Virus record (IMG/VR): IMGVR_UViG_3300010413_000193 | Coordinates: 1-21,973 of that record | Origin: a virus | DNA length: 21,973 nt | Strand: one strand, 5' to 3' | Shown: piece by piece, positions 2,380 through 20,143 of the stretch | How the letters are laid out: each line of letters starts with the position of its first letter | Position numbering within the stretch: the first letter of the stretch is position 1 | Notes under the pieces: generated by a model | Told to the model about the DNA's origin: nothing | What the model saw: only the letters and a program-made list of their open reading frames with translations | Database searches by the model: none | Translations under genes and position numbers: made by a program

Positions 2380-2387
2380 TATTTATC
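2380..2387 (-). promoter_or_regulatory. Variant late promoter GATAAATA
   Basis: One mismatch from TATAAATA, 20 bases before the ATG of the charged-protein gene, overlapping the stop codon of the terminase nuclease frame. The position fits a late promoter; the mismatch lowers confidence. Confidence 0.4.
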
Positions 2388-3489
2388 AGAAGAATTCATT
2401 ATTGAATTTTCTAGCGGCATCAAACGAATCTTCTTCATCCCACGAGCTCATTCGATTTATCAGTGACTCCTTCGAGTTATCAACCTCACCGTTATCAAAC
2501 GACCCGATATCTAAAACACTCATAAAGTCCGCCGTTTGAATGGCATCGGCTTCATCTATATGCTCAACCCTAATAGCCTCCAAGAACAGGTGCAGGTCAT
2601 CGAATGCCTTGATATGCATAAACGGAGCCATTGCGATAGCAAGAGACATAACCATATCGTCGTGATATCCCTCCTCGGCAGCGTATTTCACACTAGTATT
2701 TTCCGATTTAATGAAGCTGAAGAATTCATCAATGGTACCCCTGTCGTTGACTATAAGCTTGCCTTCCTCTATGAAGATCTTCATCATATTAAGTATAAGA
2801 GGCCTAGTTTTTTTGGTGGTCCGGAAACCATAAAATCGTTTATATCCCTTATTCTGCTCGTCACGATCTCGATACATATTAGGATACTCATAAGAAAGAT
2901 ATAACATATCAGCAATACTTTGGCCAGCCCCTTCGTTATTTTCAATAACAATGAATGCCTCGTTATAATAAAGCCCAAGTGTTTCGAGATGCTCCGGCAT
3001 AACTAGATAGTCAACATCCAACTGTGCCGCGGCGACCTGCTTGAAAGGAAACGCGGTTACATCGATAACCTGAACAGAGAACTTATCAATTCCGTCCTTA
3101 GCAGGGTCAACACCCAGAATATAACTATGTTTTTCCTTCACCTTTTCATAAATCTTTATGCCACTGAAGATACTATCCAGAGAAACTGGGGCTTTTGGTT
3201 CCATTAATTTCAACGCCTCTGTGCTAATCAAAGTGGCCGCAGAGCCAAGGAACGCGCACTCTTCCGTTTGCGCAAAATACTGGGCGCCGTACTTAGCGAT
3301 AGTTTGCTTCTCGTAAACCTCAGGTGTAAGCAAGTTACCTTTTTTATCATAGTGAGGAACTTCTTTCCAGTCCGCCTCTACCAGGCGAGCACCAGACTTT
3401 GACTGGTATTCCCTGTAAATTACCGTATATGTTCCGTCTGGGTTCTTAATAACATCTTTAATATCGTTTATTGAGTCAAGATTGATCAC
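2386..3489 (-). CDS. terL: Terminase large subunit, nuclease (C-terminal) part
   Basis: This is the headful-packaging nuclease half of a T4 gp17-like large terminase. Counted from the chosen GTG, the RNase-H-fold acidic residues fit gp17 D401, E458 and D542: D128 (in YILGVDPAKDG), E183 (in FIVIENNEGAG) and D277/D278 (in EEGYHDDMVMSL). GTG 3489 is chosen because AAGGAG (3495-3500) precedes it by five bases; an upstream TTG at 3525 is the only other in-frame start. It overlaps the end of the ATPase frame by 14 bases and lies in the +1 frame relative to it. Either the terminase is truly split and translationally coupled, or one polypeptide is broken by a frameshift at 3510-3513. The identity as the terminase nuclease domain is sure; the exact start is not. 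Confidence 0.85.
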   Translation of the reverse strand: MINLDSINDIKDVIKNPDGTYTVIYREYQSKSGARLVEADWKEVPHYDKKGNLLTPEVYEKQTIAKYGAQYFAQTEECAFLGSAATLISTEALKLMEPKAPVSLDSIFSGIKIYEKVKEKHSYILGVDPAKDGIDKFSVQVIDVTAFPFKQVAAAQLDVDYLVMPEHLETLGLYYNEAFIVIENNEGAGQSIADMLYLSYEYPNMYRDRDEQNKGYKRFYGFRTTKKTRPLILNMMKIFIEEGKLIVNDRGTIDEFFSFIKSENTSVKYAAEEGYHDDMVMSLAIAMAPFMHIKAFDDLHLFLEAIRVEHIDEADAIQTADFMSVLDIGSFDNGEVDNSKESLINRMSSWDEEDSFDAARKFNNEFF

Positions 3490-4501
3490 TAGATCTCCTT
3501 CTCTTAACGTTTTGGAACGCGTCAAATAATTCTTCAGCAGTCAATTCGAAATCATGTCCAATGAAAACCGTCTCATCTTTTTCCATCTTAACCTCGGTAG
3601 GTGGCTCGAAATTCCGGTTTTTAGCCCCCTCGACCAAGTGGTAGAAGTGGTTCATACCATTGGCCGTCGACGTACTTATGACTTGCTTAAAAATCAATGA
3701 GTTCATGGTAGGCATAACAGAGTCGATGAATTCATCCCAGAGACTTTTCTTAATATAAGCTGCTTCATCGGTATAAATGATGTTACACGTATAACCACGA
3801 AATGAGTCTGAGGACGGGCTGTCCGTCATAATACGAGTCATATTTTCGTATTCAATCTCGGATTTATTCCATACCTCAATACCCGGCATCATCCAAATAG
3901 GCAATTCAGCAAAAATCTTTTTGATTTTATCCAAAACCTCTCTGGCAGTCTTTGGTTTATTCGCAACGATACCTATATTAATATTCATGGGATGGTAGAT
4001 GCTCAACCAGAGTAAATATGTAGCGGCGGTAACGGTTTTACCACTTTGACGAGGATATAGAATAACGAGGTCTTCAAGGCTTAGGAGCTCATCTTCAAGG
4101 TGCTCTTGGTACTCACGCGGGTCTGGACGAGCTAGGCCTTTTTTGGTTGTAATCAGACAATAGTGGGTTCTGAAGTATTTGAAGTCTTCCCTGCACTTTT
4201 TATTCTCGATGTCGTGAATGATGTTCTCAGGAAGCTCAGTCTTGGCTTTTTTTAGCGTTCTGATACCATTGTAAGATACGCGACCACCGTACTTATCCAT
4301 GTAGTAACCATTGCCATTTTTCGGGGGTTGCAACAACTTCTTAAGACCGTCGTGTTCGTCGTGGGTCCAATCCTTGGTCTTCGCAACGAACTTTATAAAA
4401 TCTTGGGATTCATATAGTTCATCGGCGAATTCATCGATGGTGTCTTTATCAAGATGTTTGAGCTTAGTTAAAAGCTGTCTGTATTTTAGTTCTATATTCA
4501 T
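3476..4501 (-). CDS. terL: Terminase large subunit, ATPase (N-terminal) part
   Basis: This is the packaging-motor ATPase half of a T4 gp17-like terminase, 341 residues. The Walker A is YPRQSGKT (149-156; SRQLGKT in T4), Walker B with the catalytic acid is IIYTDEAAY (D245, E246), and the coupling motif is STSTANG (276-282) followed by MNHFYH. After residue 295 the frame continues for 46 residues that do not match the short gp17 linker, then stops, and the nuclease half follows in another frame. An exact TATAAATA lies only four bases before the ATG and there is no Shine-Dalgarno sequence, so this message may be leaderless or the true late transcript may start translation otherwise. Confidence 0.85.
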   Translation of the reverse strand: MNIELKYRQLLTKLKHLDKDTIDEFADELYESQDFIKFVAKTKDWTHDEHDGLKKLLQPPKNGNGYYMDKYGGRVSYNGIRTLKKAKTELPENIIHDIENKKCREDFKYFRTHYCLITTKKGLARPDPREYQEHLEDELLSLEDLVILYPRQSGKTVTAATYLLWLSIYHPMNINIGIVANKPKTAREVLDKIKKIFAELPIWMMPGIEVWNKSEIEYENMTRIMTDSPSSDSFRGYTCNIIYTDEAAYIKKSLWDEFIDSVMPTMNSLIFKQVISTSTANGMNHFYHLVEGAKNRNFEPPTEVKMEKDETVFIGHDFELTAEELFDAFQNVKRRRSSDQS

Positions 4502-4533: not shown

Positions 4534-4577
4534 GGAAATTATGCGGAAATTATGCGGAAATTATGCGGAAATTATGC
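4534..4577. repeat. 11-bp tandem repeat, 4 perfect copies
   Basis: The unit GGAAATTATGC occurs four times head to tail between the stop of the frameshifted small gene (4581) and the terminase promoter. The unit is not a multiple of three and it lies outside the likely coding region, so it is an intergenic expansion of one helical turn. Confidence 0.9.
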
Positions 4578-4580
4578 GGA

Positions 4581-11725: not shown

Positions 11726-12520
11726 TTAAAAAGTTTTAGTGGAGAAGTTTCTAAAATCATCTTGAGATATATGGCCTAGGTACTTAAAGCCCATTTTCTC
11801 GATTTGGTATTGCGCCATGCTCTGGTCGTATTTGAACCTACCCGATTCGATAGAATATACACCGAGAATTTTAAATTGGTTCATAATGATCTCATCGTAT
11901 GTTCCTATCTTGCGGTAAGGATCGGCTAGAATTTCTTTTGTTATATTTGCATACATTGTATTTGTCATGAGGGAGGTAACGTTGTCAATGTATAGCTTAA
12001 TAACTTCTGATTTCTGTTTACCAGTTAATTCATTAAAAAGAGAAACGTATTTACTACTGTCAAACAGGTACTTCCGAAAATCCTGGTCTATTTTACCGGT
12101 CATTTCAAGCATCAAGTCGATAACCTTTTTATTCATTGCTTCTTGTAAAAAATTAGATTTCGTATGTCCTCTGGAATTGATCCACCGGCGTCCCTGGGGA
12201 TCGGGATGGGAAAAGATATCAAAATCAAAGTCAATGACACTGTTTCCCTCGAGCTTGACTACCACCTCGGGTAGCAAAGAAATAGATCCTATAAGACTCC
12301 CGAGCCCCCTAGTAAACGTCGAAATTTGCTTCTTTGACTTAGACAGTTTTTTCATGTTGCCCAGAAATTCCATATTGGTGGCGTGGAACGCACTGGTTTG
12401 TCGACCATATCCTAGAGTTTTGGTGATGCGGTCTGTAAGTGGTATGCGTGATGCTGCCATCATCAAAATTATGTCTTTGTGGTAGCTAGCCTGCTCTGTT
12501 ATGTAGTGTCTAAAACGCAT
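11726..12520 (-). CDS. Capsid-targeted protein A, possible ART-like enzyme
   Basis: This 264-residue protein begins MRFRHYITE, like the T4 internal-protein targeting peptide MKTYQEFIAE; the gp21 protease of T4 cuts after such a Glu (here E9). The core shares an order with the next gene: FHATNMEFL (45-53), KQISTFTRG (64-72), a VVVKLEG strand, DPQGRRWIN (107-115), and YDEIIMNQFKILGVY (208-222). The block H or R, then S-T-x-T, then [DE]-E before a strand is how ADP-ribosyltransferases such as T4 Alt are laid out, and Alt is itself packaged. That link is an inference. The QGRRWI block recurs in uncharacterised phage proteins. ATG 12520 follows GGAGG. Confidence 0.6.
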   Translation of the reverse strand: MRFRHYITEQASYHKDIILMMAASRIPLTDRITKTLGYGRQTSAFHATNMEFLGNMKKLSKSKKQISTFTRGLGSLIGSISLLPEVVVKLEGNSVIDFDFDIFSHPDPQGRRWINSRGHTKSNFLQEAMNKKVIDLMLEMTGKIDQDFRKYLFDSSKYVSLFNELTGKQKSEVIKLYIDNVTSLMTNTMYANITKEILADPYRKIGTYDEIIMNQFKILGVYSIESGRFKYDQSMAQYQIEKMGFKYLGHISQDDFRNFSTKTF

Positions 12521-12530
12521 AGTCTGCCTC

Positions 12531-13289
12531 CTACCCCATATTCATTTTGGTATACTTTTCAAGTTCTTTGAATAGCTCTTTGGAATCGCGCATTATTTCG
12601 ATGGATTGAAAGTCCAGGATATCCCCATACGGCCGTTCAACTTCTCTGGTTGTCATAAGTTTAACTATTTTAAAATCGTATCCGAGAACCTCGCTGTAAT
12701 TTGACGTAGTCTGGCTTGCCAGCGACAGGAGAGTACCCCTAGATCGAGATATGACTTTCCCTGCAACGTCTATATACTTTTGTATAATAGCGGCTTTATC
12801 TTTATTTGATATTTCCTCATAATCGTATACAGCCGACAATAAATCCCACAGTTCCGGATTTTCGGACTTAAACTTGCTTTGTATCTCCCCGGATATCTTA
12901 GTCAAAGAATTTTTAAGAGGTACGTTCGTGATTTCCATAATATTGATCCACCTCCGACCCTGCGAATCATAATATGAGTAATTGTCCTCAGGAGTCCGAA
13001 AAGCGACTTTACCCTTTAACACGGCAACAATCGGTATCTCGAGGTCGATGCCTTCGGCACCCCATAATATACTGTAACCATCCCATTGATCGAAACACGA
13101 AATTGTTTTACGAGTACCCTGCATCCTCTGCAGCGTATGTATCTTGAGGAGCTCGAGTGTATGGAAATAATATCGGGTTTTCGTTCCAAACACCCTCTCG
13201 AATGCTTTTGGCGAAATGGGGATGTGCCCCTGGTATATTTTGGATAGAATTTCACTACTTCCTTTTTCCGTGAGCAATTCCCTAAACAT
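12531..13289 (-). CDS. Capsid-targeted protein B, paralogue of A
   Basis: This 252-residue protein begins MFRELLTE, again a targeting-peptide form with a probable cut after E8. It matches protein A in order: FHTLELL (42-48), KTISCF (61-66), IVAVLKG, DSQGRRWIN (108-116), KYIDVAGKVI against LYIDNVTSLM, and YSEVLGYDFKIVKL (198-211). The pair has diverged strongly, so this is an old duplication with probably different targets. If the fold is ADP-ribosyltransferase-like, E200 would be the catalytic Glu. The start follows AAGGATATAA; the stop is 10 bases before gene A. Confidence 0.6.
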   Translation of the reverse strand: MFRELLTEKGSSEILSKIYQGHIPISPKAFERVFGTKTRYYFHTLELLKIHTLQRMQGTRKTISCFDQWDGYSILWGAEGIDLEIPIVAVLKGKVAFRTPEDNYSYYDSQGRRWINIMEITNVPLKNSLTKISGEIQSKFKSENPELWDLLSAVYDYEEISNKDKAAIIQKYIDVAGKVISRSRGTLLSLASQTTSNYSEVLGYDFKIVKLMTTREVERPYGDILDFQSIEIMRDSKELFKELEKYTKMNMG

Positions 13290-13306
13290 TTATATCCTTA
13301 TATCCA

Positions 13307-13609
13307 CTATACCCATTTAATGCCGGTAATTTCCCAGCCGTAGCCAATAGCCCATTCGATTATTTCTATAATAGAAACATATGAACCCGTGTACTTACGT
13401 TTAGGTTTGGTCCAAACCTGGTTATCGATATTATTATTGTCTCTGACCAGCTCGCTAAACATCCACGAGGATCTATTTTTTGTTGCCTTGTAGTGGAAAC
13501 GTTCTTTTCCGTTGACATAGATGATGGCCTCTTTTTCATTCCAGTGCTGCTCCCGGAACTTCTCATCCATCTTAAATTTCGCTTCGGTCAAGAACATTTC
13601 ACTGAACAT
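13307..13609 (-). CDS. Small capsid-targeted protein, unknown
   Basis: The 100-residue protein begins MFSEMFLTE, then AKFKMDEK; a hydrophobic-x-Glu site occurs at E9. The rest has strands (EAIIYVNGKERFHYKAT) and ends with WEITGIKWV, suggesting a small alpha/beta domain with many aromatics. ATG 13609 overlaps the upstream stop as TAATG. The body has no recognisable family. Confidence 0.65.
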   Translation of the reverse strand: MFSEMFLTEAKFKMDEKFREQHWNEKEAIIYVNGKERFHYKATKNRSSWMFSELVRDNNNIDNQVWTKPKRKYTGSYVSIIEIIEWAIGYGWEITGIKWV

Positions 13610-13905
13610 TATATGCGACCGCCAAGTTTAGAACTGTTGAAGAGCTTTTCTATTTTCTTGATAATTTCACGCTCTTTAGCCACATCAATCCACAGGCCTT
13701 TAACCTCTTCGTCCGTGAGGAGGTCTAGCTCATAGTACAGCTTGCGAGTATATGCCTTCATCGCATCGGCCATATCGTAATATGCGTCCTTCATGATTTT
13801 GAAGTCTGCGTGCTTAGATTCTTCTAAAGTCTCTTGTTCTGTGCTGAATAGCTCAGTAAATTTTTCCATTTTTTCCCTTTTTTCCATTTTTTCCATTTTT
13901 TCCAT
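13609..13905 (-). CDS. Small capsid-targeted protein with repeated start
   Basis: The 98-residue product from ATG 13905 begins with MEK repeats and then FTELFSTE, which matches the start of T4 Alt (MELITELFDE). The cleavage-like Glu is E23, or E8 if the last ATG (13869) is used. ATG 13905 is chosen because it forms TAATG with the upstream stop and follows GGAGG; a GTG at 13914 is also in frame. The rest is helical and charged (YYDMADAMKAYTRKLYYELDLL). It is coupled at both ends to neighbours with TAATG overlaps. The function is unknown. Confidence 0.65.
   Translation of the reverse strand: MEKMEKMEKREKMEKFTELFSTEQETLEESKHADFKIMKDAYYDMADAMKAYTRKLYYELDLLTDEEVKGLWIDVAKEREIIKKIEKLFNSSKLGGRI
13867..13905. 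repeat. 9-bp repeat ATGGAAAAA duplicating a start codon
   Basis: On the minus strand the first codons are ATG GAA AAA repeated five times (start positions 13905, 13896, 13887, 13878, 13869), with ATG changed to AGG in the fourth. Each copy keeps the frame and supplies a possible start before the targeting sequence. Confidence 0.9.
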
Positions 13906-14132
13906 TACCTCCACTCCAAATCATATACTGGTTGGTCCCAGTACGTGAGGTATAAGTTCACGATGATATCGTCGTTGTATTTGATTGATTCATCTGGGTT
14001 TTGATACTGGTCCGCATCTTCATTGTAGGTGGCTTTGATTTTTCTCTTTTTCTTAAGCCATTTGTATACTTCGACTTTATAATCGTCAAGTGTTTTTGAT
14101 TCAGTTATGATGTGCCTGAATGTGTTTCCCAT
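13905..14132 (-). CDS. Small capsid-targeted protein, unknown
   Basis: The 75-residue protein begins MGNTFRHIITE followed by SKTLDD, one of the clearest targeting-peptide forms here (compare MRFRHYITE of protein A), cut site after E11. The mature part is a short basic helix (VEVYKWLKKKRKIKATY) and a strand-rich end (IIVNLYLTYWDQPVYDLEW). A T4 late promoter stands 30 bases upstream, as expected for a protein made in time for head assembly. It is first of three TAATG-coupled genes. Confidence 0.7.
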   Translation of the reverse strand: MGNTFRHIITESKTLDDYKVEVYKWLKKKRKIKATYNEDADQYQNPDESIKYNDDIIVNLYLTYWDQPVYDLEWR

Positions 14133-14162
14133 GGGAAGACCCTTGTTTTATATTATTTAAAC

Positions 14163-14170
14163 TATTTATA
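14163..14170 (-). promoter_or_regulatory. T4-type late promoter TATAAATA
   Basis: An exact TATAAATA on the minus strand, 30 bases before ATG 14132; AAGGG lies between. Confidence 0.75.
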
Positions 14171-14198
14171 TTACAAGCCAAAGGGCCTGGTAGAAATA

Positions 14199-14756
14199 TT
14201 AATCGACAGTAAATTTGATTTTCATCAGCGATGAAAATGCGGCTGCAAACTTTTTGGCATTACCGTTAGATACAATCCAGGCTTGTACGCCCGCATCAGA
14301 CATATAATTTGCTTGGTCTTTGAATCCCCCTCTTGTGAGACCCACATCTGCCATCATCTGCCGCGTGACGGCGTAAGCAAGGTCTATATTCGCTATCATT
14401 ATACCCTTCTGGTTGTATGCGTGGCCCAATTCACCGTCAGCCCGGATAGGTAGATATTTTGTATTACCCATCGAATCTTTATGGACTAGCGTGAATAGTG
14501 TTTTTGATTCATTCAATGACTCAATGTGTTCCCTGTGTTCCCTGTGTTCCCTGTGTTCCCTCAACGCATTTTCAAAGTACTCTTTATATCCCTCGTTTAT
14601 ACCAGCCATATTCTTAAAGATACTGGTGATATACGCATAGTCTTCCGCGTGTCCTTCTTCTGCAGCAGCGGCTTTTGCCTCTTTCCACTTTTTCTCGAGC
14701 TCTGCAATGCTCTTACCTGTCTCTTTTGCTACTTTTTTAATATATGGTGTTGGCAT
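14199..14756 (-). CDS. Two-domain internal-type protein with REH repeats
   Basis: The 185-residue protein has three parts. Residues 1-52 are a phage module with the pattern MPTPYIKKVAKETGKSIAEL then a helix with W, AK and EEGHAEDYAYITSIFKNMAG; similar KETGKS-E-W-AK-AYITxIFKKM modules occur in many large phage proteins without known function. Residues 66-77 are four copies of REH, encoded by a perfect 9-bp repeat. Then comes IESLNE followed by SKTLFTLV, which looks like an internal targeting or cleavage motif, and a C-terminal domain (86-185) of about 100 residues. This may be a linker-fused pair of packaged proteins. ATG 14756 follows AGGATAAAAC. Confidence 0.65.
   Translation of the reverse strand: MPTPYIKKVAKETGKSIAELEKKWKEAKAAAAEEGHAEDYAYITSIFKNMAGINEGYKEYFENALREHREHREHREHIESLNESKTLFTLVHKDSMGNTKYLPIRADGELGHAYNQKGIMIANIDLAYAVTRQMMADVGLTRGGFKDQANYMSDAGVQAWIVSNGNAKKFAAAFSSLMKIKFTVD
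14525..14560. repeat. 9-bp tandem repeat, 4 perfect copies
   Basis: The unit TGTGTTCCC repeats four times head to tail and encodes Arg-Glu-His four times between the two domains of the gene at 14199-14756. Confidence 0.9.
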
Positions 14757-14759
14757 GTT

Positions 14760-14927
14760 TTATCCTATGTTAAGTTTGTTAATGAATTTTTGAACATCGC
14801 GGTTCGCCTTGATTTCTGCATCAGTTACACCAGCAAGCTCTCTGAGGTCCCCGCTTTCACCTTCACTGAATGTAGGATCGTGTCCATTACAAACAACGGC
14901 CGATTCAAATAATTCACAGAATTTTAT
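14760..14927 (-). pseudogene. 55-codon frame with targeting peptide but ATA start
   Basis: This otherwise empty gap holds a protein-like frame ending in TAA four bases before the next ATG. It reads IKFCELFES then a polar helical body with ELAGVTDAEIKANRDVQKFI. KFCELFE matches the targeting peptides around it (Alt MELITELFDE). There is no ATG, GTG or TTG in frame after the last stop; the only place for a start is ATA at 14925-14927, overlapping the upstream TAA as ATAA. One G-to-A change from the ATGA overlap used elsewhere here would give this. Alternatives are that it was the frameshifted C-terminus of the gene at 14924-15394, or that ATA is used at low efficiency. Confidence 0.6.
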
Positions 14928-15394
14928 AGTTTAGCCCCGATATCAGATTTAACAATTAGCTTCTTGATTTCAGAAAAAATCTTGATTTCGTTTTTGATAT
15001 TGATGCCGAGTTTCTTTGCATCTTGCGCCGGCATGGCCTTGAGCTGCTCGATGACGTCATCTGATGTCCAGGCCCCATCGGATACCTTGTAGTATAGTTT
15101 TCGTAGATCTTCTAGGTCGAACGCGGTAGCCTCTTCCATTGCCCCGATGTATCCTGTCAATACATCCTTAGCCCATTTATACGACATCCCTTTTTTCGCT
15201 GCTGCTTTATCGACTTTTACGAAAAATAATGCATTACTAATTAGAACGTTTTTCTCATCATCCGGAACATCATAAGCGTCAATCATCTTGAGCGCATCGC
15301 TCAAGGTCATTCCTTTTTTTGCCGCTCGCCTTAAGTCTTGGGTAAGGCCGTAGACGCTGTTGTCAGTAGACTCCGTAAAAATTTTATGAAACAT
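14924..15394 (-). CDS. Capsid-targeted helical protein, unknown
   Basis: The product is 156 residues from ATG 15394 (MFHKIFTE then STDN), chosen over an upstream TTG at 15400 because it gives the targeting form seen in neighbours and follows AAAGGG at a fair distance. The body is almost all helical, Ala/Lys/Asp-rich, with repeated-looking segments AAKKGMTLSDALKMIDAY and AAKKGMSYKWAKDVLTGY (two copies of an AAKKGM-x(4)-A unit). It resembles small basic DNA-associated internal proteins in composition only. An A insertion in the last codons would extend it into the 14760-14927 frame. Confidence 0.65.
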   Translation of the reverse strand: MFHKIFTESTDNSVYGLTQDLRRAAKKGMTLSDALKMIDAYDVPDDEKNVLISNALFFVKVDKAAAKKGMSYKWAKDVLTGYIGAMEEATAFDLEDLRKLYYKVSDGAWTSDDVIEQLKAMPAQDAKKLGINIKNEIKIFSEIKKLIVKSDIGAKL

Positions 15395-15406
15395 AGTCAA
15401 TTCCCT

Positions 15407-16915
15407 TTATTTCGAATACACTTTCACATATTCCTCGTAGAATGGCCAAACACACTTCGGTGTGTTTTCTTTGAAGTATTTATAGTCGTCGAGGTTTGCA
15501 ATAATTTTCGTTGCACTGATATCGTCATCCGTTCTCGGTGTTTCTACAACATGCATACCTCTGTTTTTCGATAACATTTTTGAATAACTTTCAACACGGT
15601 CGGACCCTGCCAGGACAAAGTTGATGTTGTTATGTGTTTTATTCATAATGGTAAACAGGTTCCCAGTGCTTGCGTTGATGATTTCAATACCAGGAAAACA
15701 GGCTTCTAAGATTTTGTTCCGGAGTTCCTTGGTACCCTTAGTTTCTTTGCTAGATACAAGAGCAACTGTCACTGTATCATATTTAACGGTAGCCTCTTTA
15801 ATAATATTGTAGTGTGCTTTTGTGAGAACCCGCATTTTACCTAGGAACAACGCGCCCTGATTACCCGGCATCGTTTTAGTCAGCACCATTCTTGCGGTTA
15901 GCTGGATATCCTCTTTTACTTGGTCTTCCGTTTTTTTGATATGTGTAAACGGGACGTTGTATGTTTTAAGTTTTCTTGCAACTTCTCGTAGTGCAGGCTG
16001 AAGGTCCCCTTCTTTAATGTCGGCGATAATCTCGTCCACTGATTTGTTTACCTTTTTCCAGTAGTCATCTTCGTACGACATATCACCACGATATTTATCT
16101 TTGATTGTGGCACGAGCAGCCTGGTCGACTTGATACTCTTGCTGGAATTTGATGATAACATCACCATACTTGATGACAACTCCTTCTTCTTTTCCCCCGT
16201 ACTTGGACTCTACGTCTAGGAACAGCTGGGAAATACCCTGGATAATGGCATCTTGGTCATCCCAATTTATATCGGATGAACGATACAAGCTGTTCAGTTC
16301 TTTATCAACAATACCCTGAGCAAAATCTTTCTTATTGCCAAGCACGCCTTTAAATAAAACTGCCGGCGTATCTAGGTTCATTTCCTTAGCATAAAGGTCT
16401 CGTTTTGAAGTATCGAACCCTTGGGGTTTCGTTATGAGTTTACCTTGTTTGGTGGACCACGTGGATTTTGTATGGCCGATTAAAACCATGCCGTGCTTCT
16501 TGGTGTAGGATGAAGATAATGTGGGCTTAGACATCAAGAATTCAACAAATAATTCAGTACCTACCGGTATATTATTTTTTCTTAATTTAAACAGGTGGTC
16601 CCACACAAACGAGAATTGTGCGTTATTGATAGAGTTTTTCTTGATAATGGCTTTCGGGATAAATGTATGTTCGTCACTAAACATCATGTTGCCCTTGTAG
16701 GCGACAATCCAGTCCTCTTCTGCCCTGCCGGTATTTGCTTGTTTTACTAACGTAAGTTTGGTTCCGTCAGTTTTATGCTCGACTACGACGTTGGATGTTA
16801 AGAAGGCACTCTTTTTCTCATCTGACGAAAGGTACTTGTTTCCATTTTGGATAGAAATATCCAGTTGCCCCTTTGATTCGCTGATGTACTGCTTGAATGA
16901 ACCTAGTTTGCCCAC
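15407..16915 (-). CDS. Capsid-targeted ligase-NMNAT-like fusion enzyme
   Basis: This 502-residue protein has three parts. Residues 1-13 (MGKLGSFKQYISE) are a targeting peptide. About 25-275 is a nucleotidyltransferase of the RNA/DNA-ligase superfamily: motif I EHKTDGTK with lysine 48 as probable AMP-accepting residue, motif III ELFVEF (E125), motif IV EEGVVIK (243-249), motif V VIIKFQ (K256). About 353-480 is a cytidylyltransferase/NMN-adenylyltransferase fold: GALFLGKMRVLTKAHYNII, where T-x-x-H (H368) stands for the usual HxGH, LAGSDR (435-440), and ISATKI (466-471) for ISxTxxR. The GTG start follows AAAGGGAAAATAA. Such cytidylyltransferase-like domains occur in T4-like cyanophages with similar N-termini. 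The substrate is not evident; RNA repair, NAD synthesis or RNA capping are possibilities. Confidence 0.7.
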   Translation of the reverse strand: MGKLGSFKQYISESKGQLDISIQNGNKYLSSDEKKSAFLTSNVVVEHKTDGTKLTLVKQANTGRAEEDWIVAYKGNMMFSDEHTFIPKAIIKKNSINNAQFSFVWDHLFKLRKNNIPVGTELFVEFLMSKPTLSSSYTKKHGMVLIGHTKSTWSTKQGKLITKPQGFDTSKRDLYAKEMNLDTPAVLFKGVLGNKKDFAQGIVDKELNSLYRSSDINWDDQDAIIQGISQLFLDVESKYGGKEEGVVIKYGDVIIKFQQEYQVDQAARATIKDKYRGDMSYEDDYWKKVNKSVDEIIADIKEGDLQPALREVARKLKTYNVPFTHIKKTEDQVKEDIQLTARMVLTKTMPGNQGALFLGKMRVLTKAHYNIIKEATVKYDTVTVALVSSKETKGTKELRNKILEACFPGIEIINASTGNLFTIMNKTHNNINFVLAGSDRVESYSKMLSKNRGMHVVETPRTDDDISATKIIANLDDYKYFKENTPKCVWPFYEEYVKVYSK

Positions 16916-16941
16916 TTATTTTCCCTTTGTATTTTTATGGT

Positions 16942-16965
16942 ATATTATAACCTGATTTTACTGAA
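16942..16965 (-). promoter_or_regulatory. Phage promoter TTCAG-N11-TATAATAT (copy 4)
   Basis: TTCAG at 16961-16965, 11-base spacer, TATAATAT at 16942-16949 on the minus strand, 26 bases before the GTG of the ligase-NMNAT-like gene. Confidence 0.65.
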
Positions 16966-16972
16966 TAAAACG

Positions 16973-17269
16973 TTAAAGTTCTTCGTCTTCATCTTCTGGA
17001 TGAGTAACAGGAGAAACCATGAAACCAACGACAGGTTGGTCCGTTCCGGCTGTATCGAATTTTCTAAGGTCTAGTCGGTATTCAGAATCTCCCACAGTGA
17101 TGTCATAAGTCTTGGTGACTTGACCCATGTCCATGTTTTCAATGTGTTTGAACGAATACATATCCCCGCCGTACTTGTTCTTTAACCATGTGGTGGCATC
17201 TTTGATTGCTTTTGCCACGTCGAACTCGCCCTCGTCGATACGAGAGCGGTATTGCTTAAATGATGTCAT
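16973..17269 (-). CDS. Small capsid-targeted protein, unknown
   Basis: The 98-residue protein begins MTSFKQYRSRIDE then GEFD; FKQY is shared with the ligase-fusion gene downstream and RIDE is a gp21-type site (E13). The mature part is alpha-beta: helix AIKDATTWLKNKYG, then strands TKTYDITVGDSEYRLDLRKF and VVGFMVSPVTH, and an acidic tail. A late promoter and AAGGATTATC lie upstream. No family is recognised. Confidence 0.65.
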   Translation of the reverse strand: MTSFKQYRSRIDEGEFDVAKAIKDATTWLKNKYGGDMYSFKHIENMDMGQVTKTYDITVGDSEYRLDLRKFDTAGTDQPVVGFMVSPVTHPEDEDEEL

Positions 17270-17293
17270 GATAATCCTTAGCAGATTTTTATT

Positions 17294-17301
17294 TATTTAT
17301 A
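17294..17301 (-). promoter_or_regulatory. T4-type late promoter TATAAATA
   Basis: An exact TATAAATA on the minus strand, 24 bases before ATG 17269. Confidence 0.75.
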
Positions 17302-17311
17302 ATGGTTCGGC

Positions 17312-18676
17312 TTAATACAGTTTAGCAAAAGGACCAAAAACAGCACCCTTCTTCTGAGATAAGAACAACATACTGGTGATAAGATCGGATATCTTATCAG
17401 GCGATAACGAGAACAACTGGCCCATAAAGTCTATCTGCATAAGCTTAGACATCGCGATCGTCGGGTCTCCATTAAACCCACTAACCATATTTTCGTAGAA
17501 CTCCGTCTTGTTAATTGACGTCTCAGCATGGGGTTCCATTCTGACATACTGGTCGTAGAACTTAGTCTTCTGCTTTTCGAAATCTGCCGTTGTCTTCGGG
17601 TACATTTTGTGGCTGTTGTTCAGTGATAATCCATAGTCATCCATCAGCGAGGAAAGCATGTCAAGGGGAACTTTACCCATCCTAGCCGCGCCCGCGCCCT
17701 TTGCAGTAGCTTCAAATTTCAAGTTAGAAATACCTTTGGTATTTTGGCGGACTTGCATTACAGCATAAATTGAGTTTTTATCCGAAATGGTTATAACAGT
17801 ATCGGTAGTTTTGAATTTACCCCCACTCACAGAGATGTGAGATTTAACTGCGCTAATATGATACTTGAAATCCGATTTAAACCCCTTTTCATTAAGGTTG
17901 ACCTCCTCCCATCTGGCAGTCTTACCTGACATTTTTTTGAGAGAGATTCCCACTACTTCGTTTCTCCAGTACATTTCACGCAATACGGCATTAAATTGAG
18001 AGATAGGCCCGTCTGCAGCGCTTATGAGGATTTTTTTGTTCTTCTCGAGATTATTGACTAGCCAGATATCAGCAGGATTCCACGAGTCTTTCTTCGATAT
18101 GCCATACTTGGCTTTCACCAGATCAGTGATAAAGTCCATGAATCCCCCGTCCCTGGAAAAGTGGGTAAACTTAACCCGACCTAATTCAGCACACGTCTTC
18201 TTCTGCTGCTCGAAGAATGTATCCATCCAGTCAGAATCAACCTTAGGATACAGGTTAACTATTTCATCAGTGCAATCTTTTAAGAATTTCTTTTTGTCTT
18301 TGTATCCGCCGACTTTCAGCCCCATCTCGATTGCGTAAAGAGAGCATCTCTCCTGCATTGCAGTTGTCTTGGCGTCAATCTGGCCCCCACCCATACCGGA
18401 ATAAGGAGACTTATCGATTTCGGACCATTTGTATAGGTTGCCCGTTTTGGAGTCCTCAAAAATAGGAGCGTACCCGCTTCCGAGTTTCAAGAGTTTTTCA
18501 ACACCATTCTGACTCCCCTTTTCTATCTCTTTGAGGAGTTTCTTCACTGGGTCGTTCTGCTTGATAACGATTTTCTTAGCGCCTATTTTAACAGGGTTTT
18601 TTGACATAATGTCTTTTGCTAAAAGATTAAGATATGGTTTACCGAATGAGTATTCGCTCTTTCCAAAATTAGCCAT
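17312..18676 (-). CDS. Large unknown protein, possible nuclease-like core
   Basis: This 454-residue soluble protein has no targeting peptide and is encoded directly after the NTase-fold gene (TAAATG spacing), so the two are made together. The central part has QERCSLYAIEMG (109-120), then WNPADIWLV (199-207), then a helix with ISQFNAVLREMY and VVGISLKKMSG (241-251). An acid helix, a PADI strand with D203 and an SLKK strand in that order recall PD-(D/E)xK nucleases such as some type II restriction enzymes, where the middle acid is often replaced. This is a by-eye resemblance. ATG 18676 follows AGGGGAATAA. Confidence 0.6.
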   Translation of the reverse strand: MANFGKSEYSFGKPYLNLLAKDIMSKNPVKIGAKKIVIKQNDPVKKLLKEIEKGSQNGVEKLLKLGSGYAPIFEDSKTGNLYKWSEIDKSPYSGMGGGQIDAKTTAMQERCSLYAIEMGLKVGGYKDKKKFLKDCTDEIVNLYPKVDSDWMDTFFEQQKKTCAELGRVKFTHFSRDGGFMDFITDLVKAKYGISKKDSWNPADIWLVNNLEKNKKILISAADGPISQFNAVLREMYWRNEVVGISLKKMSGKTARWEEVNLNEKGFKSDFKYHISAVKSHISVSGGKFKTTDTVITISDKNSIYAVMQVRQNTKGISNLKFEATAKGAGAARMGKVPLDMLSSLMDDYGLSLNNSHKMYPKTTADFEKQKTKFYDQYVRMEPHAETSINKTEFYENMVSGFNGDPTIAMSKLMQIDFMGQLFSLSPDKISDLITSMLFLSQKKGAVFGPFAKLY

Positions 18677-19897
18677 TTATTCCCCTGTGAATTTTCCTCG
18701 GAAACCAGTTGGAGTGGATTCTGATACTTTCATTTTACCATAACTTTTGTAATATTCATCTGCAATTGATGTATAATCGGGCAAATAGCTGAACCTTTTT
18801 CTCATAAGGTTCAACATCCCGGATTTAATCTCAAAGTCAAGAGCTGGGTTACCTCTTTCAAGGCCCTGTGCTCCTTTGCCGATGGTTCTTTCTATCATGC
18901 GATCATATGTGTTTTTGATCGATTTCTTATCCAGGTGCTTCTGCATAAGGTCTAATAAGCCGACAAAACTCCACATTTTCTTAATATCAGAACTCGTGTG
19001 TTTCGCATTAAAGAATACTTCAAAAATGGACTCTAGGCTTTGTGTATAGTTAGAGTCCTTTGTTTTCTTCTCAATGAACACATCTTTTCCGTCAATCTGC
19101 CAATCTTGCTTCTCAAAGGCAGTACGGAGTCCATGGTCGACGCTGAATTTCAGGTTAGTCAGTTTGGTGTATGGTTGGCCGCCTTTAATACGAATCTTGT
19201 AGTTACTTTCTGTGCTTTTATCGGATACGACGAAGATGTCCTCACGCATAGAAGCACCCCCGGCAATTGAGATCAATAAGTATTTGTGGGCGACACCTTT
19301 TTGACCGGCTTTCAAGTCCTCGAACGAGCTACTGTGTGCAAACTTAGCGAATTCGTCTGGCGCCCCTTCAGGAGAGACATTAAGCATCTCAAAGTCAACC
19401 TGAGCAGGAACCCTGTACCCATTTTTGAACGTCATCATGAAAACAGAGTTAATCTGATTTGCTAGTTTGTCGTAACTGCCACGGTTGTTACCCATGTACT
19501 CGACGCCAGGAACAATCTCTTTGCCCTCTACTGTCTTAAGAAGTCTCCAAAGATCTGCTGCCTTATTTTTGTCTATGATAACATCGATATCACCAGAGTG
19601 GGTCTTATGCGCCATGATTTCATCATCCGTGTAGTCGTCGCTGAAAATGAAACTGGTGGAACCATTAAACATAACGCCGTTATCCAATAGTTTTTCGTCG
19701 ACCCAAAGAAACTCGCCAAATTTAGACTTAAACATCTTATTCAGTTTCTTGAACATTTTAATCGAGTTTTCACGGAACTCTTTGCGAGTTGAACGAGTCA
19801 TATCAATCTTTTGGGCCTCTAACGGTTTTCCTCCAACATCGATAGTAAGGTTACCACCTTCGTTCATGTTTTTCTTTTTGAAATCTTTGAAACTCAC
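18677..19897 (-). CDS. Capsid-targeted nucleotidyltransferase-fold protein
   Basis: The 406-residue protein begins MSFKDFKKKNMNE then GGNL, a longer targeting peptide with a site after E13. Residues about 75-172 carry the polymerase-beta-type nucleotidyltransferase signature: MFNGSTSFIF with G79-S80, SGDIDVIID with metal-binding D103 and D105, and the third acid D168 in VPAQVDFEML. Enzymes of this fold move NMPs onto RNA, proteins or antibiotics. The C-terminal 200 residues are helical and may bind the substrate. A GTG start (19897) follows AAGG and overlaps the region of the preceding stop. The partner gene follows at once. The substrate is unknown. Confidence 0.65.
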   Translation of the reverse strand: MSFKDFKKKNMNEGGNLTIDVGGKPLEAQKIDMTRSTRKEFRENSIKMFKKLNKMFKSKFGEFLWVDEKLLDNGVMFNGSTSFIFSDDYTDDEIMAHKTHSGDIDVIIDKNKAADLWRLLKTVEGKEIVPGVEYMGNNRGSYDKLANQINSVFMMTFKNGYRVPAQVDFEMLNVSPEGAPDEFAKFAHSSSFEDLKAGQKGVAHKYLLISIAGGASMREDIFVVSDKSTESNYKIRIKGGQPYTKLTNLKFSVDHGLRTAFEKQDWQIDGKDVFIEKKTKDSNYTQSLESIFEVFFNAKHTSSDIKKMWSFVGLLDLMQKHLDKKSIKNTYDRMIERTIGKGAQGLERGNPALDFEIKSGMLNLMRKRFSYLPDYTSIADEYYKSYGKMKVSESTPTGFRGKFTGE

Positions 19898-19898
19898 A

Positions 19899-20111
19899 TT
19901 ATAACCTTGTATTCAGTATTTTTTCACGTTGTTTTTTAAGCGCATCAACTTGTGCCCAAAACATTTTTTCTTCGGATAGATCCGCGTCTGTTGGAATATT
20001 TTTCAGGAGCTTATCGATTTCTTTGTTGATTTTGCTGGCCGCTTTGAGTCGGGCTATATGGTTTTCATCAAGCGCATCGAAGAAGTACTGTTTTAATTCT
20101 GATTGGCTCAT
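19899..20111 (-). CDS. Small helical protein, unknown
   Basis: The product is 70 residues from ATG 20111 (MSQSELKQYFFD). An in-frame ATG at 20123 exists, but the GGGGGAT site four bases before 20111 and a late promoter 24 bases before it favour the shorter form; from 20123 the leader would be only a few bases. It is a helical, charged coiled-coil-like protein (about 15-66, ARLKAASKINKEIDKLLK). The SELKQYFFDALDE start slightly resembles a targeting peptide but lacks the clear pattern. It leads into the NTase gene. Confidence 0.6.
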   Translation of the reverse strand: MSQSELKQYFFDALDENHIARLKAASKINKEIDKLLKNIPTDADLSEEKMFWAQVDALKKQREKILNTRL

Positions 20112-20135
20112 AACATCCCCCATCTTTAAGTGTTA

Positions 20136-20143
20136 TATTTATA
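20136..20143 (-). promoter_or_regulatory. T4-type late promoter TATAAATA
   Basis: An exact TATAAATA on the minus strand overlapping the last codons of the PIG-L gene, 24 bases before ATG 20111. It would start the late transcript carrying the NTase and its partner. Confidence 0.7.

What the first reader, a model, noticed from the sequence alone, without database searches (positions are those of the whole stretch)
11726..19897. A block of genes whose products all look capsid-targeted
Seen: ten frames begin with short variants of one peptide: MRFRHYITE, MFRELLTE, MFSEMFLTE, MEKFTELFSTE, MGNTFRHIITE, (I)KFCELFE, MFHKIFTE, MGKLGSFKQYISE, MTSFKQYRSRIDE, MSFKDFKKKNMNE. Bodies are unrelated. Known: T4 internal proteins (MKTYQEFIAE) and Alt (MELITELFDE) carry such a peptide, which sends them into the prohead and is cut by gp21 after hydrophobic-x-Glu. 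Inference: this 8 kb is a cargo locus for proteins injected with the DNA, with enzymes as well as small unknowns.
Basis: partly seen in the sequence, partly recalled or inferred. Interest (0 to 1): 0.88.

Follow-up and report, generated by a model that had tools for sequence, protein, structure and literature searches.

The report
Tagged protein cargo for phage heads
A T4-like phage carries a row of genes, most of whose proteins begin with a short, probably cut-off address label that sends them into the virus head, so that enzymes can be injected into the host together with the viral DNA.

Summary
The window is a 21,973-base fragment of a T4-like phage, far from any named one. Ten peptides of the kind described are there, but not on "all" genes: 9 of 12 block frames have a usual start plus a tag, one tagged frame has no ATG/GTG/TTG start, two genes (g_f, g_j) have no tag, and two tagged bodies are paralogues. 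A profile trained on relatives and T4, without window sequence, scores 6 of 12 block frames at 5 bits or more, against 0 of 22 other window genes and 4 of 2103 internal methionines. In relatives the tag comes and goes on the same enzyme. All 21 extended homologues of the ligase/nucleotidylyltransferase (28 compared) have hydrophobic-x-Glu 3-6 residues before the body; all 6 tagged Pol-X-like homologues (23 compared) put the Glu directly before GGN, where the 17 untagged ones start M-GGN. In three cyanophages, others found a cytidylyltransferase in virions; each starts with such a tag. In one of them the virion's Cas9-like, kinase and SAM-hydrolase proteins do too. Best reading: T4-type capsid-targeting, prohead-protease-cleaved tags on a late-expressed cargo island that includes enzymes. 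Cleavage, packaging and injection in this phage are inferred.

The parts
11726..12520 (-). g_a, 264 aa, tag MRFRHYITE (12494-12520), possibly ART-like fold
12531..13289 (-). g_b, 252 aa, paralogue of g_a, tag MFRELLTE (13266-13289)
13307..13609 (-). g_c, 100 aa orphan, tag MFSEMFLTE (13583-13609)
13609..13914 (-). g_d, orphan; tag MEKFTELFSTE from internal Met (13837-13869), preceded by 9-base repeats; weak tag (S-T-E)
13905..14132 (-). g_e, 75 aa orphan, tag MGNTFRHIITE (14100-14132)
14199..14756 (-). g_f, 185 aa, no tag; related to a 72-aa protein of Vibrio phage phiKT1024
14760..14927 (-). frame x, KFCELFE, no ATG/GTG/TTG start; doubtful gene
14924..15400 (-). g_g, orphan, tag MFHKIFTE from ATG at 15394 (15371-15394)
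15407..16915 (-). g_h, 502 aa, tag MGKLGSFKQYISE (16877-16915), RNA-ligase-like (KTDG) plus nucleotidylyltransferase
16973..17269 (-). g_i, 98 aa, tag MTSFKQYRSRIDE (17231-17269); homologue in L014 starts MIRFSTFKKRINE
17312..18676 (-). g_j, 454 aa, untagged here; homologues in L014, L016, L017, L033 have tag-like starts
18677..19897 (-). g_k, 406 aa, tag MSFKDFKKKNMNE (19859-19897), Pol X / beta nucleotidyltransferase-like fold
14163..14170 (-). TATAAATA, 38 nt upstream of g_e
15477..15484 (-). TATAAATA, about 84 nt upstream of the g_g ORF, inside the end of g_h
17294..17301 (-). TATAAATA, 32 nt upstream of g_i
20136..20143 (-). TATAAATA, 20 nt upstream of the small gene 19899-20123 that precedes g_k

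Best explanation
The 8 kb is a cargo island. Late in infection, partly from T4-type late promoters, the phage makes a set of mostly unrelated proteins that begin with an 8-13 residue capsid targeting peptide (typically aromatic-x-x-hydrophobic-(I/L)-x-Glu). The peptide binds the prohead core, so the proteins are enclosed when the head shell forms. The phage's gp21-type prohead protease then cuts after the Glu and frees the mature proteins, which are ejected with the DNA into the next cell. Shown here: the peptides, their statistics, their presence and absence on orthologous enzymes with the Glu held at the body boundary, and the late promoter motifs. Shown by others: virion detection of cyanophage proteins that I find to be tagged. 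Inferred: binding, cleavage, packaging and ejection in this phage. The likely purpose is to act before any phage gene is expressed: g_a and g_b perhaps as ADP-ribosyltransferase-fold modifiers, g_h (RNA-ligase/nucleotidylyltransferase) and g_k (Pol-X-like nucleotidyltransferase) as nucleic-acid repair or end-modifying enzymes, and the fast-changing small proteins as inhibitors of host defences, as T4 IPI-III are.
For: Profile without window sequence: 6/12 block frames vs 0/22 other genes, background 4/2103. g_h family: 21 of 28 rows extended, 21 of 21 with hydrophobic-x-Glu 3-6 residues before the body, background 0.157 per random 12-mer; by my count from that output 19 of 21 have I/L at -2 and 20 of 21 have A/S/G/T after the Glu. 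g_k family: 6 of 23 tagged, 6 of 6 with Glu directly before GGN, 17 of 17 untagged start M-GGN, 6 changes on the tree, 3 of them forced by starred branches. The tag is poorly ordered in both models: g_a 1-13, g_k 1-4 and 6-14 have pLDDT under 50. Relatives: L014 has FKKLFTE on three neighbouring short genes; L017 has MKTF/MKTY/MKSF-type tags on a run of different genes. Tag density falls with distance from g_h over 27 loci plus the window: 25/196, 14/177, 9/141, 6/149 ORFs per 2.5-kb bin, internal background 19/1876. T4 control: the plain pattern finds IPII, IPIII, Alt and gp24. Late promoter TATAAATA: 7 exact vs 1.77 expected, 0 of 200 shuffles reach 7, 5 of 7 lie 8-45 nt upstream of a start. 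Capsid proteins of three phages that share g_h and g_k have INE, LVNE and LVGE where T4 gp23 has its FLTE site. Virion mass spectrometry by others: in S-CREM2 the extended pattern is on 6 of 26 detected non-structural or unknown proteins, 9 of 167 undetected, 0 of 26 structural or lysis proteins (Fisher p 0.007); cytidylyltransferase reported in S-SM1, S-SZBM1 and S-CREM2 virions, all three tagged.
Against: No virion, cleavage or injection data for this phage; no gp21 or capsid gene is recognised in the fragment (the Peptidase_S77 search was empty but had no positive control; the same model does ring in 5 of 14 relatives' records). g_f and g_j in the block are untagged; g_d ends in STE and x has no usual start. 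The residue after Glu in g_a, g_b and g_d is Q or K, not the small residue usual in relatives. The g_h tag state is clustered on its tree (4 changes; 8 of 500 shuffles as low), so the 21 are not independent. One split g_h homologue left out of the count (L027, MNFREYLNKEKDQLDISI) does not fit at the boundary. The plain pattern misses T4 IPI and also hits T4 genes that are not head proteins (17 of 275 ORFs). With one mismatch TATAAATA is not enriched in the window (47 vs 41), and exact copies are not enriched in L014 (7 vs 10.2). On the stricter profile S-CREM2 gives only 2 of 26 against 1 of 166 (p 0.049); most unknown proteins in its virion are untagged. In CP220, whose g_k is tagged, none of 11 identified virion gel bands is, by number and mass, g_k, g_h or g_j, a low-sensitivity test. 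Cyanophage cytidylyltransferases resemble only g_h's nucleotidylyltransferase family, weakly (8.8 bits).
Confidence: 0.85

Rival explanations
1. The tags do lead these proteins into the prohead core, but the small ones are assembly helpers (like gp67, gp68 or, in part, IPIII) that stay in or leave the head, rather than injected effectors.
For: T4 core proteins are likewise taken into the prohead and cut by gp21; several small block proteins are orphans of unknown function.
Against: The conserved bodies look like enzymes, and five small frames (g_c, g_d, g_e, g_g, x) have no homologue in the loci searched, not even in the closest relative L014, which fits effectors better than assembly parts.
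Confidence: 0.15
2. The shared starts are chance or a general habit of late phage genes without targeting function.
For: Single hits occur elsewhere: 6 of 167 undetected S-CREM2 proteins match the plain pattern, and T4 has 17 hits in 275 ORFs, among them genes such as DNA ligase and RNase H.
Against: Profile test 6/12 vs 0/22; Glu position kept in 21/21 and 6/6 extended homologues; none of 26 structural or lysis proteins of the S-CREM2 virion matches.
Confidence: 0.03
3. g_a and g_b are not ADP-ribosyltransferase-fold proteins but belong to another family.
For: Foldseek best E is 0.14 in the PDB and 0.042 in BFVD, none at 0.001; best VIA-align Z is only 5.0, in a range that the tool calls common by chance; no credible Pfam or PDB profile match.
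Against: Ranks 1-4 of the structural re-alignment, and 20 of the 50 rows shown by my count, are ART-superfamily proteins (CteC, DarT, Tpt1/KptA, diphtheria toxin, TreTu, PARPs); the idea was noted before the fold; H46, S67 and E210 are invariant in 6 of 6 rows.
Confidence: 0.35

Closest known systems
T4 internal proteins IPI, IPII, IPIII and their capsid targeting sequence
   Same: N-terminal peptide: T4 MKTYQEFIAE against g_h SFKQYISE; IPI MKTFKEFTSTTTPVSTITE|A, with a long spacer, has the layout of g_i SFKQYRSRIDE and g_k SFKDFKKKNMNE. Ip1-3 share no homology beyond the leader (PMC12373910, passages).
   Different: Here ten frames lie in one 8-kb block, tags differ in sequence from gene to gene, and conserved enzymes carry them; T4 has three IP genes in two loci.
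T4 Alt, packaged ADP-ribosyltransferase (MELITELFDE)
   Same: A head-packaged protein with the same kind of start; g_a and g_b may be ART-fold too.
   Different: g_a and g_b are 252-264 aa, match no Pfam ART family, and their conserved H, S, E differ from the R-S-E set that I recall for Alt.
Cyanophage virion cytidylyltransferase (T4-GC190) and its locus
   Same: Tagged start (MKKFSAFLNE|A in S-SM1, MRFRQFIIE|A in S-SZBM1, MKNFSSFLTE|A in S-CREM2), virion detection by others, position upstream of primase and nrdA in S-ShM2, S-SM1 and S-CREM2, g_j homologue near it in S-ShM2.
   Different: No g_h-type ligase domain detected; only weak similarity to g_h.
SPN3US (giant phage) ejection-protein propeptides
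   Same: Prohead-protease-cut N-terminal propeptides on injected proteins (PMC5694885, passages).
   Different: Several of those propeptides are over 100 residues and only one is about 20; here the tags are 8-13.

Membership tests
T4-type capsid targeting sequence | Short N-terminal peptide ending in Glu (T4 IPs: 10-19 residues) | tested here: met
   9 of 12 frames with a usual start; Glu at residue 8-13, g_d counted from an internal Met
T4-type capsid targeting sequence | Hydrophobic residues at the T4 positions 4, 7 and 8 and Glu at 10 | tested here: met
   Exact spacing in g_a, g_b, g_e, g_g, g_h (5 of 12 frames); the other tags have a residue more or less or a longer spacer, as T4 IPI does
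T4-type capsid targeting sequence | gp21 site L/I-x-E | tested here: inconclusive
   I/L at -2 in 7 of 10 window tags (F, M, S in the others); 19 of 21 in the g_h family by count
T4-type capsid targeting sequence | Same leader on unrelated bodies | tested here: met
   g_c, g_d, g_e, g_g and x match only themselves in the ORF set (window and the loci held then, a few duplicates left out); g_a and g_b are paralogues
T4-type capsid targeting sequence | Cleavage by the cognate prohead protease | not testable with these tools
   No gp21 recognised in the fragment (no positive control); relatives' records have one
T4-type capsid targeting sequence | Tagged protein present in virions | not testable with these tools
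   No data for this phage; reported for tagged proteins of three cyanophages by published mass spectrometry
Pol X / DNA polymerase beta-like nucleotidyltransferase (g_k) | Fold | tested here: met
   Foldseek best E 6.2e-4, probability 1.00, to Pol lambda (TM-score 0.31 on the query); VIA Z 8.4, 197 residues, to Pol mu; covers about residues 1-312
Pol X / DNA polymerase beta-like nucleotidyltransferase (g_k) | GS, DxD and third Asp (motif recalled) | tested here: met
   G79, S80, D103, D105, D168 invariant in 23 rows
RNA ligase fused to nucleotidylyltransferase (g_h) | Motif I K-x-D-G (motif recalled) | tested here: met
   K48, D50, G51 invariant in 28 rows; PF09414 matches 6 of 28 members, best 1.2e-5
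RNA ligase fused to nucleotidylyltransferase (g_h) | Cytidylyltransferase-like domain | tested here: met
   PF01467 matches 25 of 28 members, best 1.7e-8; PDB profile hit PPAT 1.8e-6; the window row alone is below the cut-off (E 0.015)
ADP-ribosyltransferase superfamily (g_a, g_b) | Fold | tested here: inconclusive
   Best Z 5.0 to CteC; Foldseek best E 0.14
T4-type late promoter | TATAAATA shortly upstream of late genes | tested here: inconclusive
   Window: 7 exact vs 1.77 expected, 5 of 7 at 8-45 nt upstream of starts; not enriched with one mismatch nor in L014; 3 vs 0.73 in L017

The most novel reading that the evidence does not exclude
Capsid targeting peptides are an interchangeable part: the same enzyme (RNA-ligase/nucleotidylyltransferase, Pol-X nucleotidyltransferase, g_j, PNK-like kinase) is switched between 'made in the new cell' and 'preloaded in the virion' by adding or dropping about ten residues. 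The preloaded set amounts to an RNA-end repair and host-modification kit that works before the first phage transcript, and the peptide can be used to predict injected proteins across T4-like phages, including Cas9-like and SAM-hydrolase proteins of cyanophages.
Probability: 0.45. Interest if true: 0.87.

Novelty: new variant of a known kind. Interest (0 to 1): 0.74.

Why it matters
To my knowledge it is mostly unknown which phage proteins enter the cell with the DNA, outside T4 and a few giant phages. A short readable label that can be tested in sequence, that is seen present and absent on the same enzyme, and that marks enzymes already detected in cyanophage virions (where the authors of PMC10665884 could not exclude contamination) turns that question into a prediction for many genomes. 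It also suggests that nucleic-acid repair and perhaps ADP-ribosylation-type enzymes are delivered ready-made against host defence.

Tried and rejected
Near-DNA search of the window in phages: no match. tblastn of g_a, g_b and g_f in phages: none. Protein scans of viral contigs with g_k and g_a alone: none; the g_h alignment gave 36 loci, the g_k alignment only three Campylobacter phage contigs. Pfam for ten block proteins (g_k scanned later): nothing over a cut-off, only a CTP_transf_like trace in g_h. Profile search of the PDB with g_k, g_j and g_a: nothing credible. Considered and rejected: that the tags are recent DNA duplications (tag codons differ between genes of L017 and of the window; in L014 three tags are nearly the same DNA, so there it is not excluded); that the motif is merely a start-codon habit. 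In the gp23 alignment a fourth capsid protein (L063) could not be aligned clearly at the cut site and was not counted. Rows left out before counts: g_h 28 of 37 profile hits used (contig-end fragments, near-copies and the split L027 gene left out; one search did not list them one by one, so I cannot name every one); g_k 23 of 30 used (L018, L032, L035, L038, L045 and two L027 pieces left out). S-CREM2: one search used 218 and all 219 annotated genes. Papers: only passages, tables or single sections were read, as named; PMC9391042, which holds the words 'capsid targeting' once, was seen only in listings.
Full report
What the window is. G000 is a 21,973-base virus record. It has no DNA-level match among 50,697 phage records. 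Its nearest named relatives by protein are the Campylobacter CP220 group and the Vibrio phiKT1024/pv27/Va1 group: 44-46% identity for g_h and 33-35% for g_k, about 47% over 70% of the terminase piece. The closest environmental relative found is locus L014 (64% in g_h). Ribonucleotide reductase genes, a GroES-like gene and a split terminase flank the block (names of the flanking genes by recognition, the terminase by tblastn).

Observation. Searches confirm the ten peptides on the minus strand between 11726 and 19897. Nine frames have a usual start; frame x has none, g_f and g_j have no tag, and g_a and g_b are paralogues. To avoid judging the peptides by themselves, I built a position profile from 32 tags of relatives and T4 with no window sequence and scored every gene start. 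Six of 12 block frames reach 5 bits or more (g_h 12.4; g_b, g_c, g_e, g_i 7.1-7.9; g_a 5.3), none of 22 other genes does, and 4 of 2103 internal methionines in six-frame ORFs of three phage genomes do. In the 32 tags, position -2 from Glu is I 15, L 14, V 2, F 1, and the residue after Glu is A 11, S 9, G 8, T 2, N 1, D 1. g_d, g_g, g_k and x are not supported by this profile.

T4 control. The plain pattern finds IPII, IPIII, Alt and gp24 in T4, misses IPI, and also hits genes that are not head proteins; 17 of 275 ORFs in all, against 8 of 712 internal ATGs. The pattern alone is therefore a lead, not proof. The T4 literature assigns targeting to IPIII residues 4 and 7 and processing to 8 and 10, with gp21 cutting after L/I-x-E (PMC9026906, passages); the exact-spacing tags of g_a, g_b, g_e, g_g and g_h fill these positions. 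T4 IPI (MKTFKEFTSTTTPVSTITE|A) shows the long-spacer layout seen in g_i and g_k.

Comparative test, g_h. An alignment-based scan gave 36 viral loci. Of 28 aligned homologues, 7 start directly at the conserved body (for example phiKT1024 MSKQHLDISI, CP220 MQKDQIDISI) and 21 carry a tag of 9 to 43 residues, very variable in sequence, for example MKTFKQYITE|AKAMLDISI (L017), MNFVQYINE|GKEQLDISI (L044) and MGKLGSFKQYISE|SKGQLDISI (window). All 21 have hydrophobic-x-Glu 3-6 residues before the body, where 16% of random 12-mers from the bodies would. Tagged and untagged states need 4 changes on the tree, 3 of them forced by well-supported branches; the label is clustered (8 of 500 shuffles as low), so the 21 are not independent draws. 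The split L027 copy, not counted, does not fit.

Comparative test, g_k. Of 23 homologues, 17 begin M-GGN and 6 carry a tag whose Glu stands directly before GGN: window MNE, L014 INE, L016 LNE, L017 LQE, CP220 ILE, L042 LLE. Cutting there would give the same mature N-terminus that Met removal gives in the untagged proteins (Met removal before Gly is recalled knowledge). Six changes on the tree are needed, 3 of them forced. g_j shows tag-like starts in 4 of 10 rows (L014, L016, L017, L033) and not in the window, L024, S-ShM2 or CP220.

Neighbours in relatives. L014 has three successive short genes starting with FKKLFTE and different bodies; L017 has a run of genes starting with MKTF-, MKTY- or MKSF-type tags. 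Across 27 loci and the window itself the pattern occurs in 25 of 196 ORFs within 2.5 kb of g_h, 14 of 177, 9 of 141 and 6 of 149 in the next bins, internal background 19 of 1876. In L017 and in the window tag codons differ between neighbouring genes, so the peptide is kept at the protein level; in L014 the three FKKLFTE tags are nearly the same DNA. A P-loop family whose iterated search also draws in T4 polynucleotide kinase is tagged in L016, L017, L019 and L021.

Expression. TATAAATA, the T4 late promoter motif (recalled), occurs 7 times exactly in the window against 1.77 expected; no shuffle of 200 reached 7; five lie 8-45 nt upstream of starts, including g_e, g_i and the small gene before g_k, and a sixth abuts the terminase start. 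None lies within 45 nt upstream of nrdA or nrdB. Against this: one-mismatch copies are not enriched (47 vs 41), and exact copies are 7 vs 10.2 expected in L014 and 3 vs 0.73 in L017.

Protease and capsid. I recognise neither in the fragment. A relative's contig (G004, locus L028) has a Peptidase_S77 protein at E 2.5e-26 and gp23 at 2.2e-90. The likely capsid propeptide ends are INE|GTMSSDVAQ (L028), LVNE|GTLSGDVAQ (phiKT1024) and LVGE|SVISSDIAQ (CP220), next to T4 FLTE|AEIGG: hydrophobic-x-Glu again. The T4 cut site in gp23 is recalled; the others are read off the alignment.

Virion evidence from other laboratories. Sullivan and colleagues report a putative citidylyltransferase (T4-GC190) in purified S-SM1 virions (PMC3037559, passages); the S-SM1 gene labelled GC 190 starts MKKFSAFLNE|A. 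S-SZBM1's cytidylyltransferase, 362 aa, is in its virion list (PMC9146016, table); the 362-aa cytidyltransferase of the record (numbered otherwise there) starts MRFRQFIIE|A, close to g_a's MRFRHYITE. S-CREM2's is in its list (PMC10665884, section 18 and passages) and starts MKNFSSFLTE|A. In S-CREM2 the four detected enzymes that are neither structural nor lytic carry the pattern: cytidylyltransferase, APH/ChoK-like kinase (MKRFDAFLTE), SAM hydrolase (MKDFDSFLEE), and the Cas9-like protein (FASFMAE at residues 19-25, extended pattern only). Over the genome: 6 of 26 detected non-structural or unknown proteins, 9 of 167 undetected, 0 of 26 structural or lysis proteins (Fisher p 0.007; strict pattern 5 of 26 against 6 of 167, p 0.008). 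I chose the genome because of its cytidylyltransferase, so that gene is not an independent draw. The profile alone gives only 2 of 26 against 1 of 166 (p 0.049). Against: CP220's 11 identified gel bands include, by number and mass, none of the block homologues (PMC2853527, section 7). The S-CREM2 authors say such enzymes may be contaminants; the tag argues otherwise.

What the cargo may do. g_h: invariant KxDG motif and RNA_ligase and CTP_transf_like matches in family members. g_k: Pol X/beta-like fold with invariant GS and Asp residues. g_a/g_b: model of mean pLDDT 79; the top structural re-alignments are ART-superfamily proteins, but Z is at most 5.0 and Foldseek's best E is 0.14, so this is a lead. 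A review of viral NAD+/ADP-ribose systems proposes head-packaged ARTs and describes repair of cut tRNAs by ligases with nucleotidyltransferases (PMC9503650, passages); T4 Ip1-3 block type IV restriction enzymes (PMC12373910, passages). A preloaded repair and modification kit is thus plausible, not shown.

Novelty. The principle is known in T4: at least ten IPs have been reported in T-even phages, and the Black review suggests that the tag serves to load varied proteins. In my searches no listed title, and no passage that I read, describes such tags in cyanophages or in this clade, or their presence and absence on orthologous enzymes; only open-licence PMC papers were searched and few were read beyond passages. 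I rate it a new variant of a known kind.

Noticed in passing
window 2386-4501: The terminase large subunit is split: phiKT1024 gp17 residues 52-290 match one frame and 306-604 another; frameshift, sequencing error or remnant of an insertion is open.
   Followed up: partly
window 4534-4580, 13861-13906, 14525-14561: Short tandem repeats: 11-base units before the terminase, 9-base units inside g_d (KMEKMEK) and g_f (REHREH).
   Followed up: no
L050 18966-19130 and L052 26061-26885 (T4): T4 gp61.1 starts MKTFKEFIKE and gp2 starts MAIFQIINE, both like capsid targeting sequences; gp61.1 also drew in T4 gp23 in an iterated search.
   Followed up: no
L067-L071 (S-CREM2): Cas9-like nuclease, APH/ChoK-like kinase, SAM hydrolase and cytidylyltransferase detected in purified virions carry the tag, the Cas9-like one at residues 19-25.
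   Followed up: yes
L007 31766-31978, L016, L018, L019, L021, L023, L026, L031, L044: A tiny conserved protein, tag-like start then a segment such as ETTSGDIATVDTKLD and a Lys/Cys/His-rich end, in nine loci.
   Followed up: partly
L013 11172-11402 and 12287-12703 (Xanthomonas phage X1): Starts with FEDFLAE (after a 10-residue lead) and MIDFDTWLYE near a nucleotidyltransferase and a g_k homologue: the tag may reach this distant group.
   Followed up: no
L014 4252-8289: Three genes with CxxxCxxC starts like radical-SAM proteins near the cargo island of the closest relative (reading by eye).
   Followed up: no
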